Origin: Candidatus Binatus sp.
GTDB lineage: Bacteria > Desulfobacterota > Binatia > Binatales > Binataceae
Reading direction: 5' to 3'
Length of the DNA stretch: 64,000 nt
Assembly (NCBI RefSeq): GCF_030646925.1
Contig: NZ_JAUSKL010000089.1
Coordinates: forward strand, 1-64,000
Position numbers and translations under genes: made by a program. The notes beneath the pieces are model-generated. The model saw only the letters and a list, made by a program, of their open reading frames with translations. It did no database searches and was not told where the DNA came from. Within the stretch, counting starts at the first letter, position 1. The number at the start of each line of letters is the position of its first letter. Of this stretch, positions 23,510-31,271 are shown piece by piece.

Positions 23510-24220
23510 ATGTGCGGCAGATTCACAATCACGCGGCGCGACGGTAATTCGCTGGCGGCGGAACTGGGTGTGGCGACGGATTCGTTCGCCGATTACAAGC
23601 CGCATTACAACGTCGCGCCGACGCAAGATCACTTCATCGTAAGAATCAAATTCGAGAACCGCGAAGCGATTCCGGCGCGCTGGGGTTTCGTGAACAGTTG
23701 GGCCAAAGACGCGAGCGGCGCCGCGCGATGTATCAACGCGCGTTCGGAAACGGTCGAGCGGGTGCGCGCGTTTCGCGAGGCGTTCATCAAGCGGCGATGC
23801 GTGGTGCCGGCGGACGGATTTTTCGAATGGACGGGGCCGAAGAATGAGCGCCAGCCGATCTGGTTTCATCGCGAAGATGGCGGCCTGATCCTGATGGCGG
23901 GACTGTACGAATCGTGGCAAATGAGTCCGGGCAATTGGCAGAGGACGTTTACGATTCTCACCACCGCAGCAAATTCGATCGCGGCGCGGTATCACGATCG
24001 GATGCCGGTGATACTCGACGACCGGCACGCCGACGACTGGATGGATCCGCGCGCGCCGAAGCCGCTCGCGCTCAAGAAGTTACTCGCGCCTGCGCCAGAC
24101 GAACTGCTGGTGCCGACGCCGGTATCGCCGAGAGTGAACGACGTCGCCAACGATTCGCCGGACCTGCTCGAGACGCCCAAGGACCATTCACTCGCGGCGC
24201 GCCAGTTGAATCTGCTGTAG
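23510..24220 (+). CDS. yedK: SRAP/HMCES-family abasic-site crosslinking protein (YedK)
   Basis: 236 aa. Family members trap abasic sites in single-stranded DNA by a thiazolidine link through the N-terminal cysteine after removal of Met. Visible here: Cys2 (MCGRFT), Asn34 (YNVAPTQ), INARSET at 75-81, Glu106 (DGFFEW) and His162 (YHDRMPVIL), matching the conserved active site. The family is often tied to the SOS response, though I see no clear LexA box upstream. It stands alone, transcribed toward tRNA-Cys. Confidence 0.93.
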   Translation: MCGRFTITRRDGNSLAAELGVATDSFADYKPHYNVAPTQDHFIVRIKFENREAIPARWGFVNSWAKDASGAARCINARSETVERVRAFREAFIKRRCVVPADGFFEWTGPKNERQPIWFHREDGGLILMAGLYESWQMSPGNWQRTFTILTTAANSIAARYHDRMPVILDDRHADDWMDPRAPKPLALKKLLAPAPDELLVPTPVSPRVNDVANDSPDLLETPKDHSLAARQLNLL

Positions 24221-24341
24221 CTCGCGGGGGTGAATCGAAGACTCCGCGCTGAGATGCGTCGAGGCGCGCGCTGAATTGATTGGCCGATCGAGCGCGTGAT
24301 ACTTGATTGGGTACTGCCCGCATCAAGCCATCGCCATCGAG

Positions 24342-24417
24342 GGCGGCGTACCCAAGTGGTTAAGGGAGAGGTCTGCAAAACCTCCATGCATCGGTTCGAA
24401 TCCGATCGCCGCCTCCA
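24342..24417 (+). tRNA. tRNA-Cys (GCA anticodon), intact copy at the island junction
   Basis: Acceptor GGCGGCG pairs with CGCCGCC, anticodon stem-loop GAGGT-CTGCAAA-ACCTC gives anticodon GCA, and the T-arm is ATCGG-TTCGAAT-CCGAT. Discriminator T is followed by encoded CCA (24415-24417). The 3' part (from 24371) is repeated identically at 26344-26393, marking it as the integration target of the mini-island. Confidence 0.95.
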
Positions 24418-24420
24418 AAT
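24371..24420 (+). repeat. Left attachment repeat (within tRNA-Cys)
   Basis: 50 bp from the anticodon loop to three bases past the encoded CCA, beginning GTCTGCAAAACCTCCATGCA. It is identical base for base to 26344-26393. Confidence 0.9.
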
Positions 24421-24475
24421 TTACTCAATGATAAAAAGGGGAACTTCGCGGTTAGGCCGAATCTCGGAATCCCAG

Positions 24476-24494
24476 TCGTCACCTTTTCGTCACC
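24476..24494 (+). repeat. 19-bp direct repeat near the left end of the island
   Basis: TCGTCACCTTTTCGTCACC, itself two GTCACC units 11 bp apart. The same 19 bp lie at 26208-26226 in the same orientation. They may be integrase arm sites or remnants of an integrase 3' end (the minus strand reads V-T-K-R-stop in both copies). Confidence 0.7.
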
Positions 24495-24505
24495 AAGTCA
24501 ATTAG

Positions 24506-24533
24506 AAAGGCGCGGGGTTTAGGCCGCGCCTCT
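24506..24533 (-). terminator. Probable terminator of the reverse transcriptase gene
   Basis: On the minus strand, AGGCGCGG and CCGCGCCT arms enclose an 8-nt loop and are followed by TTTCT. It lies about 100 bp beyond the reverse transcriptase stop. The T-tract is short. Confidence 0.5.
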
Positions 24534-24630
24534 GAGTATCCGAGAAAGAGGGTCCGGGTTTATCCGGCGTTCCGAATCTGAACCATTCGAGTGTCAGGGA
24601 ATAGCTTTCGTAGAGACTGTACCTCGCGAA

Positions 24631-26013
24631 TCACGCGGCAGCCTTGAGCCAGTCAACTGCGTATCGGCTTTCGGGGAATTCTTTGGCTGCGAGCTGCAGG
24701 AAGGTCTTAACTCGCCCGTCGCCGCTGAAACGTTTCAAAGAGGCGACGATAGCCCTTCGGACATTGGGCTCTTTTTCCTCGCGCGCAGCTTCCATCAGAT
24801 AACGGGGCTTAGTTTCGTCGCTGCGAGCCAGTGCCTTCCAAGCAGAACAGCGTGTAGGCCAAGGTCTAGTCCTGTCAGAAGCGATCCGCTTGAACTCGTT
24901 TGCTTCCGCTGTTCCTGTCCGCACCTTGGACATCGTCCGGAGTTCGTGCAGAGCTAGAGCTTCAAGATGGCTCTCAGGGGTTTGCGATAGTCGCCGCATA
25001 CAATTTTCCACGACACGCTCATCAGATCCCGCAGTTTTGAGATATTCGCTGGTAAGCTTCGGATCTATGTTCATCAGGTCTTGGCGCTCAGAGAGTCGGC
25101 TGCAACCATACTCGTCACCCTTGTTCATCAGAAATCTCAAAATCCATCGAAACCGCGACTGCTTGATCGCGTCCGAATCCGAAACGAGACGATCGAATGC
25201 TCGCCTAACAGCGCTCCTCTTCAAACCGGGCGAGTATGCGAATCCTCCGTCCAGATAGTCGATTTCTCCATCCTTGAGATTCGCCGTGGCGTCCTCGGGA
25301 TCATCGAAATAGATGGTCTTTTCTTCTGACCGACTCAAGTTCAGTCCGCTTAACTCATCATCAAACAAATCAACGAGCGCCTCGCTGAAGCGCCTGTTTG
25401 GTGTGAAGATCAAGAAATCGTCACCATATCGCCTGTGCGCTATTCCGGTCGAAATAATTGAACGATCTACGGGTTCTAAAAAAAAATTTCCAAGCACTGC
25501 ACAGCCTTCAGGACCAATCGGGAGACCATCTCTTCCATGCAGTTCCCGCCAGAAGCGGAGTGCGCTAACAATTCGTTTGACGGAAACGCGGTCGCAGTTG
25601 CGCGCATACAGCATTTGTTCGAGGGTCTCGATGCGAATCGATTCATAGAATTTCGTGACATCGGTTCGACACATGAACTGGGAATCAGCTTGTTCGAGAA
25701 GAGTCACACCTTCGCCGACAAACGACATCCAACCGCGCGGGCGGAAGGTCCATGCAGCATCAGGATCGGAACGCGGAACGATGCGATAAGAAAAAACACG
25801 ACCAGAAATCAATTTATCGGTAACTTCAGCTATGCGCCCGGCAGATGACCTCAGCAGAGTAAGATCAGCGGCGCTGGCTACAGCCATCGTCCGCACCTTC
25901 TTGGGCTCATTCGCGCGATAGTTTGGATAAGGGAAAAAAGTCAACTCGCGAGGGGGCCGATTTTGTGACGCCTCTAGCGACAAGTCTTCAGCAAATCGGG
26001 CGGCAGAATTCAC
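24631..26013 (-). CDS. Reverse transcriptase with C-terminal helical-repeat region (putative defence RT)
   Basis: 460 aa from a GTG at 26013. Palm motifs in order: motif A CRTDVTKFYESI (Asp118), motif B GLPIGPEGCAVLGNFFLEPVD (163-183), motif C HRRYGDDFLIF with catalytic YGDD (196-199), motif D LNLSRSEEKTIYF. Residues about 290-460 look like helical HEAT-type repeats (VRRAIVASLKRFSGDGRVKT). No group II intron maturase or endonuclease domain is visible, nor the VTG motif of retron RTs. Single-gene RTs of this kind in islands are mostly anti-phage (Abi/DRT/UG groups), so defence is inferred; I cannot assign the subclass. The frame is open upstream to 26127 with a Shine-Dalgarno but no standard start, so the N-terminus is doubtful. 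Confidence 0.88.
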   Translation of the reverse strand: MNSAARFAEDLSLEASQNRPPRELTFFPYPNYRANEPKKVRTMAVASAADLTLLRSSAGRIAEVTDKLISGRVFSYRIVPRSDPDAAWTFRPRGWMSFVGEGVTLLEQADSQFMCRTDVTKFYESIRIETLEQMLYARNCDRVSVKRIVSALRFWRELHGRDGLPIGPEGCAVLGNFFLEPVDRSIISTGIAHRRYGDDFLIFTPNRRFSEALVDLFDDELSGLNLSRSEEKTIYFDDPEDATANLKDGEIDYLDGGFAYSPGLKRSAVRRAFDRLVSDSDAIKQSRFRWILRFLMNKGDEYGCSRLSERQDLMNIDPKLTSEYLKTAGSDERVVENCMRRLSQTPESHLEALALHELRTMSKVRTGTAEANEFKRIASDRTRPWPTRCSAWKALARSDETKPRYLMEAAREEKEPNVRRAIVASLKRFSGDGRVKTFLQLAAKEFPESRYAVDWLKAAA

Positions 26014-26117
26014 GTAGTCCTGAAAATCGACTACGTCAGGAATCTCAAAGAATCGTGAGTTCCATTGGGCAACCGCTAAAATGTGTCTTCGCAGTTGTTG
26101 TAAATCGAATTGCGTTA

Positions 26118-26184
26118 CCTCCGCCTCTCAACCGCCCCGCAAACCAAGGCTCCATCTTATATCACATGATGCTCTTCTCGGAAA
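26118..26184 (-). promoter_or_regulatory. Candidate promoter and Shine-Dalgarno of the reverse transcriptase
   Basis: On the minus strand, TTTCCG (26179-26184) and TATAAG (26156-26161) are 17 bp apart. A strong Shine-Dalgarno GGCGGAGG follows at about 26118-26125. The RT frame has no ATG, GTG or TTG suitably placed after it. The rest of 26014-26343 holds the second 19-bp repeat and no other supportable gene; a structured RNA here is possible. Confidence 0.4.
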
Positions 26185-26207
26185 CGGACTGCGATCGCGC
26201 GAGCGCA

Positions 26208-26226
26208 TCGTCACCTTTTCGTCACC
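26208..26226 (+). repeat. 19-bp direct repeat near the right end of the island
   Basis: Second exact copy of TCGTCACCTTTTCGTCACC; see 24476-24494. Confidence 0.7.
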
Positions 26227-26343
26227 GTGGCATCCGATTTCATGGGTGAGAACGGGTTCCGTAGACCGAACGCTTTTCTGGAAAATGCCTCGATTCGTCT
26301 CGATAACGACTTGTCACAACTTGATGACGACGCGACACGGAGC

Positions 26344-26393
26344 GTCTGCAAAACCTCCATGCATCGGTTCGAATCCGATCGCCGCCTCCAAAT
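26344..26393 (+). repeat. Right attachment repeat (tRNA-Cys 3' fragment)
   Basis: 50-bp identical copy of the tRNA-Cys 3' end, without the 5' acceptor and D arms, so it is not a functional tRNA. It ends 9 bp before the stop codon of the exported-protein gene, marking the island boundary. Confidence 0.9.
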
Positions 26394-26402
26394 ATTGCGA
26401 GT

Positions 26403-26885
26403 CTAAGGCGTGGGCGGTGGCGGTTGTGCGAGATTGTGATCGGGTTTCACGGTCAGATTGACGAGGCACGGCGGACCGTCTTCGCCGTAGCAAAGCTTGC
26501 TCAACTCGCCGAGCCCGGGGTTGCGATCGTCGTGCGTGTAGCCGGGGCAAATCCATGCGCCGCTGCCTGAGCGATAGAGCGCGACGGTGAAGTAGCGGCC
26601 CGGATCGAGCCGTCCTGTAAGAGGATCGCCGCGTGGCGGCAATTCGCGGGAATTGGTGACCTGGAAGCCGTCGTGGGCGGCATCGGGCGAAAATTGCATG
26701 AAGAAAATTCGCCATTGGCGGCCGGGCTGCGCGGCGACGGAATATTCCATCGAGCGATCGTAGGAGAACACCGGCTTGTCGCGGCATAGCCACGGGCGGG
26801 CTTCGGCGGCGAGCGACGGAGCAGTGGCGACGATCGCGATCGCGGATGCGAGGGCGGCTGATTTTGCGAGCTTCAAAAGTTTCAA
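26403..26885 (-). CDS. Exported protein of unknown function
   Basis: 160 aa. A Sec signal peptide is clear (MKLLKLAKSAALASAIAIVATAPSLA, cleavage near Ala-Glu at about 27). The mature part has several cysteines (WLCRD, WICPG, KLCYG, PPCLV) that could form disulfides, and a Pro-rich tail. It begins with a TTG overlapping the stop codon of the upstream mutase gene (TTGA), so it is probably translationally coupled. I do not recognise the family. Confidence 0.72.
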   Translation of the reverse strand: MKLLKLAKSAALASAIAIVATAPSLAAEARPWLCRDKPVFSYDRSMEYSVAAQPGRQWRIFFMQFSPDAAHDGFQVTNSRELPPRGDPLTGRLDPGRYFTVALYRSGSGAWICPGYTHDDRNPGLGELSKLCYGEDGPPCLVNLTVKPDHNLAQPPPPTP

Positions 26886-29927: not shown

Positions 29928-31271
29928 TTACTTATTAAAGGCGGTCTGCACCTTCGAGCTTCGATGCGCGGCCAGAACAGTGTGCTCCAGCTTTGCAAGG
30001 CGTTGCTCGATAGCAATGCGCATCGCCGCGTCGCGTTGGTGATTCGCTTCCAACCTTGCGATGCGATCAGCTTGTTCCTGATTCTTTCTAGTTTCCTTCT
30101 GAAGTTCGTTGAGGAGCATCGAGGAGAGCATCGAGTAGCGCACTGATTCGACCTTGCCATCCGGATCGTGGACCACCAGCTCCGGATAGACTTGATCGAC
30201 TTCTTCGGCGACGAGGCCGTACTGCCTTACACCTTGCTGATCGCCTTTGTAGATGAAGGTCACCGGATGCAGCTTCATCAGGGCGTCGGTCGAGGTCCCC
30301 ATGTCATGGATGTCGCGCTTGTAGCGAGCAGACGACACTATTATTCCCAGGCGACCGCTGCCGTTAACGACGACATCGCTGCCAGTCACAGAACTGCCCG
30401 CGATACCGGCAATGAAGGTCGCGGTCTGTGTGCCCTGCGTGCCGAGTCTAATAGTAGCCGCGTCAGCAGCGACACCGCGGTTGCCGAGATCGATGTTGTT
30501 GCTGCCGGTGGTTAGAAAAAAGCCTGCCTGGAAACCAATGGCAGTATTGGATTGGCCGGTCGTGTTCTTGAAGAGGGCTTGGACGCCGTCGGCGGTGTTG
30601 AAGTTGGCCGTAGTGTTGTTGTACAGAGCTTGCGCTCCGCTCGCGGTATTCTGGATACCGGTGCTGCTGTTGTAGAGAGTGTTCGCTCCTTGGGCGGTGT
30701 TGTTCCTGCCCGAGGTGTTGAATGTCAGCGCTCCAACTCCGGTGGCGGAATTGTTGGCGCCCGTGGTGTTGAACTCAAGGGCGCCCACTCCGGTGGCCGT
30801 ATTCAAGGAGCCGGTGGTGTTGAATGTGAGGGCTTCTGCTCCGGTGGCGGTATTGTTGGCGCCCGTGGTGTTGTCAAAAAGCGTCTGGAATCCGCTGGCG
30901 GTGTTGTCGCCCCCCGAGATGTTGTTAAAAAGCGCGCTGTGTCCGCTGGCGGTGTTGAAGGAGCCGGTGGTGTTGAATGAGAGGGTTTGTGCTCCGGTGG
31001 CGGTATTGTCGCCCCCCGAGATGTTGTTAAAAAGCGCGTGGAATCCACTGGCGGTGTTGAAGATGCCAGTGGTGTTGCTCCCGAGCGCAGCGGCTCCGAA
31101 GGAAGTGTTGTTGGTGCCGGAGGTGTTGCTCCCGAGCGCACCCGTGCCTCCGGCGGTGTTTCCCATGTCGCTTACGTCGTTGTTGGGCGGCGCACCAGCC
31201 CAGCTCGATGCGGCTGCGAGGGTGAGGATCAGGCCGGTGATCGCGATCGCATCCTTCCAAACTCTGTTCAT
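29928..31271 (-). CDS. Exported repeat protein with peptidase S74 / intramolecular chaperone domain
   Basis: 447 aa. Signal peptide (about 1-26, cleavage after SSWA), then thirteen 17-residue repeats (about 42-262, pattern GxxALxxNTTGxxNTAxG). A linker region (about 263-315) follows, then an S74 domain (about 315-395) beginning at VSSARYKRDI, with YGLVAEEVDQVYPELVV and VRYSMLSSMLLNELQ, and a C-terminal coiled coil (about 390-440). S74 domains trimerise beta-helical fibres and usually cleave themselves off before the Ser; they are best known from phage tail spikes. Here the signal peptide points to a cell-surface fibre. The ATG has an excellent AGGAGGA site. Confidence 0.88.
   Translation of the reverse strand: MNRVWKDAIAITGLILTLAAASSWAGAPPNNDVSDMGNTAGGTGALGSNTSGTNNTSFGAAALGSNTTGIFNTASGFHALFNNISGGDNTATGAQTLSFNTTGSFNTASGHSALFNNISGGDNTASGFQTLFDNTTGANNTATGAEALTFNTTGSLNTATGVGALEFNTTGANNSATGVGALTFNTSGRNNTAQGANTLYNSSTGIQNTASGAQALYNNTTANFNTADGVQALFKNTTGQSNTAIGFQAGFFLTTGSNNIDLGNRGVAADAATIRLGTQGTQTATFIAGIAGSSVTGSDVVVNGSGRLGIIVSSARYKRDIHDMGTSTDALMKLHPVTFIYKGDQQGVRQYGLVAEEVDQVYPELVVHDPDGKVESVRYSMLSSMLLNELQKETRKNQEQADRIARLEANHQRDAAMRIAIEQRLAKLEHTVLAAHRSSKVQTAFNK
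30486..31148 (-). repeat. In-frame 51-bp tandem repeats (13 units)
   Basis: DNA encoding the thirteen 17-residue units of the S74 protein. Units at residues 76-92 and 110-126 (FNNISGGDNTA) are nearly identical at DNA level, suggesting recent duplication. These are coding repeats, not a CRISPR array. Confidence 0.85.

What the first reader, a model, noticed from the sequence alone, without database searches (positions are those of the whole stretch)
24371..26393. Reverse-transcriptase mini-island of about 2 kb in tRNA-Cys
Seen: identical 50-bp direct repeats, one inside an intact tRNA-Cys and one a 3' fragment, bracket 1.97 kb of lower-GC DNA whose only recognisable gene is a YGDD reverse transcriptase with a C-terminal helical-repeat region. 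No integrase, maturase or endonuclease is present. Known: solitary RTs in such islands are frequently anti-phage (Abi, DRT, unknown-group RTs). Inference: this is a minimal mobilisable defence cassette moved by an integrase in trans, or the remains of a larger island. The subclass of the RT is not obvious to me.
Basis: partly seen in the sequence, partly recalled or inferred. Interest (0 to 1): 0.78.

Follow-up and report, generated by a model that had tools for sequence, protein, structure and literature searches.

The report
Integrase-free one-gene reverse-transcriptase mini-island
A 2-kb piece of foreign DNA carrying a single, probably virus-fighting reverse transcriptase sits in a bacterial tRNA gene with the landing sites of a mobile element but no enzyme to move itself, and sister species carry other small genes or nothing at the same spot.

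Summary
tRNA-Cys (24342-24417) and a 50-bp perfect copy of its 3' part (26344-26393) bracket 1,923 bp (GC 52%, rest of the window 62%) with one large gene, a reverse transcriptase (RT) on the minus strand with intact YGDD. The RT is not a group II intron or retron enzyme; its best profile is 'unknown group' UG23 (153 bits), and with two relatives from the same bacterial family (53 and 46% identical) it forms a divergent clade. A 19-bp double motif, CGTCACC-tttt-CGTCACC, lies inside both ends and nowhere else in the genome. An integrase-bearing element and a phage attP, both using tRNA-Cys, carry repeated motifs in comparable places, so the island keeps an integrase-type att layout without an integrase. 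In the genus, one species is empty here and three carry other 0.8-1.2-kb inserts, one encoding a candidate single-gene defence protein. I read it as a CIME-like, non-autonomous element carrying a probable anti-phage RT. Such elements are known; the unnamed RT clade and the swapping of small cargo at one tRNA are what is interesting. Defence and mobilisation in trans are untested; no helper integrase was found; a dead remnant is not excluded.

The parts
24342..24417 (+). tRNA-Cys (GCA), intact; target gene, its 3' part restored by the island's own core
   Evidence: ARAGORN, Rfam RF00005 64.9 bits
24371..24420 (+). left core repeat (attL-like), 50 bp, from the anticodon loop to 3 bp beyond the tRNA
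   Evidence: 100% identical to 26344-26393
26344..26393 (+). right core repeat (attR-like), displaced tRNA-Cys 3' fragment
   Evidence: not a tRNA gene by ARAGORN
24476..24494 (+). left arm-like site TCGTCACCTTTTCGTCACC, two CGTCACC boxes 11 bp apart, 55 bp inside the core
   Evidence: only 2 sites in the 4.58-Mb genome with up to 2 mismatches
26208..26226 (+). right arm-like site, identical 19 bp, 117 bp inside the core
24631..26124 (-). reverse transcriptase gene, UG type nearest UG23/UG32, YGDD, helical C-terminus; first GTG at 26013, likely start further upstream (ACG 26113-26115 by eye)
24509..24535 (-). GC-rich stem after the RT stop, possible terminator of the RT transcript (approximate coordinates)
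   Evidence: 10-pair stem in the fold of the 3' flank; the terminator scan did not list it

Best explanation
The 1,973-bp unit is an integrated, non-autonomous element of the cis/trans-mobilisable kind. Its outer parts form an attachment layout: a core in the tRNA-Cys 3' half and paired arm-type integrase sites inside both ends. Its inside is one self-contained gene, a UG-type RT. A tyrosine integrase supplied by another tRNA-Cys-targeting element would excise and insert it by recombination at the 50-bp cores; the island's own core restores the tRNA, so the host keeps a working gene. The RT most likely protects the host from phage by making DNA after infection, as other studied UG RTs do, its C-terminal helical repeats serving oligomerisation or control. 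Shown by calls: repeats, arm-like sites, gene content, RT family, an empty site and other inserts at the site. Inferred: integrase action in trans, present mobility, defence and its DNA product.
For: 50-bp perfect core repeats with an intact tRNA. 19-bp arm-like sites at both ends, absent elsewhere in the genome, and the spaced doublet in only one other place in 41 family genomes. Two tRNA-Cys integrase elements place repeated motifs comparably: G036, whose ORF beside the tRNA is a PF00589 integrase (141.7 bits), gaps 49-58 and 107 bp against 55 and 117 here; and an IMG/VR contig with a PF00589 integrase (66.6 bits) beside a tRNA-Cys fragment, CGTACCA doublets 35 and 139 bp away. Empty site in G003; other inserts in G001, G004, G005 and, outside the genus, G031. 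RT: top PADLOC profiles are all UG/DRT groups, UG23 153.4 bits; the RT is absent from the 6 congeners. PADLOC PDC-S11, 114 bits, at the same site in G004.
Against: No helper integrase found. The two RT relatives are solitary genes between other genes without a tRNA in the 10-12.5 kb held or flanking direct repeats of note (one 14-nt match), so the RT can sit in a genome without such an element. The other mini-islands tested lack arm-like repeats (8 of 8), so they need not share a mechanism. In three other family genomes (G019, G015, G007) the 0.9-2.0 kb between tRNA-Cys and the conserved lipoprotein ORF holds ORFs that do not look like defence and no tRNA repeat. G004's insert has no second repeat. 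The RT has no ordinary start codon at its conserved N-terminus, which could mean damage.
Confidence: 0.6

Rival explanations
1. A dead remnant: a larger phage, ICE or IME in tRNA-Cys lost its integrase and other genes by deletion; the RT gene is what is left and nothing moves it now.
For: CIMEs are described as decayed ICEs or IMEs (PMC5704250, PMC7563491, passages). No helper found. The odd RT start.
Against: Both ends, with arm-like sites, are kept intact and 78% of the interior is one open gene; no fragment of another mobile gene was recognised. Several small inserts of different content at the same site would need repeated, similar deletions.
Confidence: 0.3
2. Nested structure: the 19-bp repeats are not arm sites but the borders of an inner RT cassette inserted into a micro-CIME of about 190 bp left in tRNA-Cys.
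For: The 19-bp repeats flank the RT gene exactly once each; micro-CIMEs of 130-220 bp are reported (PMC7563491, passage).
Against: Each copy is itself a doublet with an 11-bp period, like the doublets on both sides of the phage attP core, and the gaps to the cores resemble those of G036. The RT relatives have no such repeats.
Confidence: 0.06
3. The RT is not a defence enzyme but serves another role (e.g. housekeeping repair or an unknown retroelement).
For: No activity is known for this clade; its two relatives sit as solitary genes between apparent housekeeping genes.
Against: Top profiles are UG/DRT groups; group II and retron models score 36 and 32 bits against cut-offs of 300 and 235; no other repeats of 12 nt in the island.
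Confidence: 0.15

Closest known systems
CIME (cis-mobilizable element), as described in PMC5704250 and PMC7563491 (passages)
   Same: att-like repeats at both ends, no integrase or transfer gene; cargo-bearing CIMEs of 1.2-13 kb are reported
   Different: solitary here, not in tandem with an ICE or IME; origin by decay of an ICE not shown; one gene only
Dehalococcoides ssrA islands without integration module (PMC3146451, passages)
   Same: RNA-gene 3' repeats, no integration genes, suggested there to be cis-mobilizable
   Different: tmRNA target, serine recombinase helper, tandem arrays, dehalogenase cargo
tRNA-Cys integrase elements: G036 (L047) and IMG/VR contig IMGVR_UViG_3300013118_000461 (L170)
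   Same: same target, core in the tRNA 3' part, end-proximal repeated motifs at comparable distances
   Different: they carry a PF00589 integrase; their motifs differ in sequence
UG23 / UG32 and other unknown-group (DRT) reverse transcriptases (PADLOC)
   Same: best profiles over nearly the whole length (residues 21-494 on UG23)
   Different: 153 bits, against 265-525 bits for six full-length members of UG21, UG19, UG9 and Drt8 on their own profiles; distinct clade on a long stem; no certain UG23 was compared
CALIN cassette arrays (PMC11389934, passages)
   Same: integrase-free units that depend on an integrase elsewhere
   Different: tRNA core and arm sites, not attC sites; no array

Membership tests
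CIME | att sites kept at both ends | tested here: met
   50-bp cores and arm-like sites; function of the sites not tested
CIME | no genes for integration or transfer | tested here: met
   one large gene, an RT; no PF00589 match here; serine recombinases not searched as a family
CIME | derived from an ICE or IME by decay | not testable with these tools
   no parent element found
CIME | moves by accretion with an ICE or IME | not testable with these tools
   no neighbour element at the site; experiment needed
UG-type (DRT/Abi) RT | RT domain with YxDD closest to UG profiles | tested here: met
   YGDD; 8 of the 9 families at E <= 1e-15 are RT_UG groups or Drt8 and the ninth is Drt3a
UG-type RT, class 1 | C-terminal HEAT-like alpha-Rep domain | tested here: inconclusive
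   HEAT_2 E 0.0014 below cut-off; weak helical model
UG-type RT | anti-phage activity | not testable with these tools
   experiment needed
UG23 | falls among UG23 members | tested here: inconclusive
   best profile, but low score; tree lacks a certain UG23
Group II intron RT | matches the RT/maturase model; intron RNA | tested here: not met
   35.8 bits against cut-off 300; no Rfam intron at E <= 1 in 24200-26500
Retron | matches retron RT models; retron ncRNA | tested here: not met
   St85 model 32.2 bits against 235; no Rfam hit but the tRNA
DGR | template and variable repeats near the RT | tested here: inconclusive
   no repeated 12-mer in the island but the arm-like sites; more distant repeats not searched

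The most novel reading that the evidence does not exclude
In this genus the tRNA-Cys gene works as an open docking site for interchangeable one-gene (or one-pair) cassettes, defence genes among them: 0.8-2-kb units that carry only att sequences and cargo and are moved entirely by integrases of passing elements, like integron cassettes but in a tRNA. The RT of the window belongs to a new UG group that travels this way.
Probability: 0.25. Interest if true: 0.75.

Novelty: new variant of a known kind. Interest (0 to 1): 0.5.

Why it matters
If the arm-like sites work, this is a very small unit that can carry an immune gene between bacteria, and it suggests how lone defence genes could spread without a carrier of their own. 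It gives a direct test: supply a tRNA-Cys integrase and ask whether a two-kb, one-gene unit excises. The RT clade would also be a further, untested branch of the DNA-making antiviral RTs.

Tried and rejected
Helper integrase: the own genome has 4 PF00589 genes. C3's lies after what looks by eye like a tmRNA 3' end (ARAGORN calls nothing there); C102's lies inside another tRNA mini-island; C24's and C114's were not typed. None is at tRNA-Cys. The phage integrase of L170 has no relative at E 1e-20 in 118 class genomes (the tool warns that without a positive control an empty answer shows nothing). The arm motif with up to 2 mismatches: 42 matches in 35 of 148 class genomes, 40 of them outside the window, against 22 for the pattern read backwards, so an excess over the control that I did not explain; no genome but the window's has two sites on one contig, and 6 of the loci checked have no tRNA nearby. 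IMG/VR has no exact CGTCACCTTTTCGTCACC.

RT relatives elsewhere: none in viral contigs; one full-length relative in genome contigs, evidently G029 again (two weak short hits besides); plasmids 26 records, the 20 listed partial and 22.8-31.4% identical; phages 1 record, 23.6%. In 395 phylum genomes only the window and a distant partial hit (G337) pass E 1e-20. The UG23 profile hits 74 of 395 phylum genomes at E 1e-12; none of the ten proteins I rescanned has UG23 as best hit.

ncRNA partner: no Rfam family in 24200-26500 at E <= 1 but the tRNA; folds of three non-coding stretches are not unusual (z -0.63, -1.20, 0.60). Flanks of the three RT genes share only 25 bp at 88% just before the gene, in two of the three. 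This gives no evidence for an RNA template.

Structure: poor model (mean pLDDT 47.6), so no fold search. Dropped as chance: a 15-nt match near a tRNA-Gly and a cross-match between neighbouring tRNAs; a 13-nt match upstream in G003 and a 14-nt match 38.6 kb away in the window. The two tRNA-Cys hits of G025 are overlapping contig ends.

Full report
OBSERVATION. tRNA-Cys lies at 24342-24417 on the plus strand. A 50-bp stretch from its anticodon loop to 3 bp past its end is repeated without a mismatch at 26344-26393. The interior is 1,923 bp with GC 0.522, against 0.619 for the rest of the window. One large gene fills 78% of it: an RT read from the minus strand. Pfam finds RVT_1 (36.8 bits, cut-off 29.6) and a sub-threshold HEAT_2. 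YGDD and an upstream aspartate motif (FMCRTD..KFY) are conserved in the three relatives (the catalytic roles are recalled).

THE RT. PADLOC ranks UG23 first (153.4 bits over residues 21-494), then UG32 121, UG21 107, Drt8 101, UG22 93. Group II and retron models score 36 and 32 bits against cut-offs of 300 and 235. Two close relatives were found among the 36 same-family genomes (own included): G027 (53% identity) and G029 (46%). All three have UG23 as best profile (153, 175 and 129 bits). Of ten other RTs rescanned, six full-length proteins whose best hit is UG21, UG19, UG9 or Drt8 score 265-525 bits on those profiles, and a 319-aa Drt8 ORF scores 382. In a 28-sequence tree the three form one clade (100/99) on a stem of 2.37 changes per column; a separate 12-row clade (100/100) holds the three scanned RTs that match the general RT or RT-Cas1 models (9 of the 12 not scanned). 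The tree holds no certain UG23, DGR or retron reference, so I call the RT a divergent UG clade nearest to UG23/UG32, not UG23. Papers describe class 1 UG RTs as having HEAT-like alpha-Rep C-termini and untemplated synthesis, class 2 as using RNA templates (PMC13174585 and PMC12632851, passages). The helical C-terminus leans to class 1, weakly. In one search (57 papers, 20 listed) only one RT paper held 'UG23' (PMC8934634, passages).

START CODON. The frame is conserved upstream of the first GTG (26013): N22, F26-D30, D36 and Y37 are identical in all three, and including this part raises the UG23 score from 139.5 to 153.4 bits. Between the stop at 26128-26130 and 26013 there is no in-frame ATG, GTG or TTG. 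ACG at 26113-26115, with AGAGG eight bases before it, is the likeliest start by eye. The gene could instead be damaged, or the assembly could hold an error.

THE ENDS. TCGTCACCTTTTCGTCACC lies 55 bp inside the left core and 117 bp inside the right one. It holds the only repeated 12-mers of the interior, and none of 2,000 mononucleotide shuffles gave a repeat as long between the 200-bp ends. The genome has no other site within 2 mismatches; across 41 family genomes the doublet CGTCACCNNNNCGTCACC occurs in one other place (G058). Two comparisons suggest what it is. G036 (same class, other family) has a 6.1-kb element in its tRNA-Cys with a PF00589 integrase next to the tRNA (141.7 bits); a 17-bp motif is common to its two ends, 49-58 and 107 bp from the cores. 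An IMG/VR contig pair (L169/L170, identical over the 550 bp compared) has a PF00589 integrase (66.6 bits) beside a tRNA-Cys 3' fragment, with CGTACCA doublets 35 bp before and 139 bp after it, periods 11 and 12 bp. So the mini-island has the layout of a tyrosine-integrase attP (arm and core roles recalled) without the integrase.

THE SITE IN RELATIVES. tRNA-Cys was found in 39 of 41 family genomes; I scanned all 39 neighbourhoods plus G036 by script. For 6 of the 39 less than 3.1 kb is held downstream (G002, G011, G016, G021, G030, G059), so copies could be missed. A downstream copy of the tRNA 3' end was found in 4 of 39 (G000, G001, G005, G031) and in G036. Within the genus the order YedK - tRNA-Cys - lipoprotein-like ORF - mutase - ArgK is shared as far as contigs reach. 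G003 is empty downstream (about 15 bp from the tRNA to the match of the next ORF), though in G003 YedK is 4.6 kb upstream, with other genes between. G005 has a 0.8-kb unit with DUF433 and DUF5615 proteins (43-bp repeat), a pair that I take, from recall, as toxin-antitoxin-like. G001 has 1.1 kb with one 316-aa ORF of no known family (25-bp repeat). G004 has about 1.2 kb with one protein matching PADLOC PDC-S11 (114 bits; 'phage defence candidate' is recalled) but no second repeat. G002's contig ends 138 bp past the tRNA, and G006 has no tRNA-Cys match. So 4 of 5 readable species are occupied, each differently. Outside the genus, G031 has 1.3 kb with a 209-aa ORF of no assigned family (48-bp repeat). 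Against a general defence spot: in G019, G015 and G007 the gap between tRNA-Cys and the lipoprotein ORF holds ORFs that do not look like defence and no tRNA repeat. Of 10 end comparisons, only the window's island and G036's show a common motif beyond shuffles (0 of 500 each; lowest of the other eight 0.086).

ELSEWHERE IN THE GENOME. Of 50 tRNA genes in the stretches held (several with under 1 kb downstream), 6 have a 3'-end copy of at least 18 bp within 0.7-4.0 kb: Cys, Lys, Met, Asn and two Arg. Among the five others only the C102 unit holds a PF00589 ORF; the Lys unit holds a DUF5615 protein and the C78 Arg unit one pilin-like ORF. Short spacings between a tRNA and a fragment also occur in congeners, at least one with an integrase (G002, tRNA-Lys). 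Serine recombinases were not searched for. No matched control in other bacteria was run, so I cannot say that six is unusual.

READING. The most economical account is a CIME-like element. CIMEs keep att sites and have lost integration and transfer genes; those with cargo measured 1.2-13 kb in one survey (PMC5704250, PMC7563491, passages). Dehalococcoides ssrA islands without integration modules were read the same way (PMC3146451, passages). A 2024 review of helper-dependent elements describes integrase-free cassette arrays as comparable hitchers (PMC11389934, passages). What is unusual is the one-gene format, the intact arm-like sites, the turnover at one tRNA within a genus, and the RT clade. 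What is missing is a helper, proof of movement and proof of defence.

Noticed in passing
window 26013-26130, minus strand: RT frame conserved upstream of the first GTG without any ATG/GTG/TTG; ACG at 26113-26115 is a possible start. G029's homologue also has an ACG right after the in-frame stop.
   Followed up: partly
window 29928-31271, minus strand: 447-aa protein of repeated N-T-A/T-x-G units with an adhesin- or tail-spike-like C-terminus by eye; a similar-looking 506-aa ORF lies inside the tRNA-Asn mini-island of the same genome (L148).
   Followed up: no
L136, L142, L148, L151, L155 (own genome): Five further tRNA genes (Lys, Met, Asn, two Arg) with 3'-end copies 0.7-4.0 kb downstream; four of the five without a PF00589 gene.
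   Followed up: partly
G003:C107 (not fetched): tRNA-Arg with two partial 3' copies about 2.8 and 3.5 kb away, which looks like two small units in tandem.
   Followed up: no
L092 (own genome C3) 1-1317: 409-aa integrase frame starting after what looks by eye like a tmRNA 3' end at a contig edge; ARAGORN calls nothing in the locus.
   Followed up: partly
L040 (G003), between YedK and tRNA-Cys: About 4.6 kb with a 1,026-aa response-regulator/histidine-kinase-like ORF lies upstream of the otherwise empty tRNA-Cys site.
   Followed up: no
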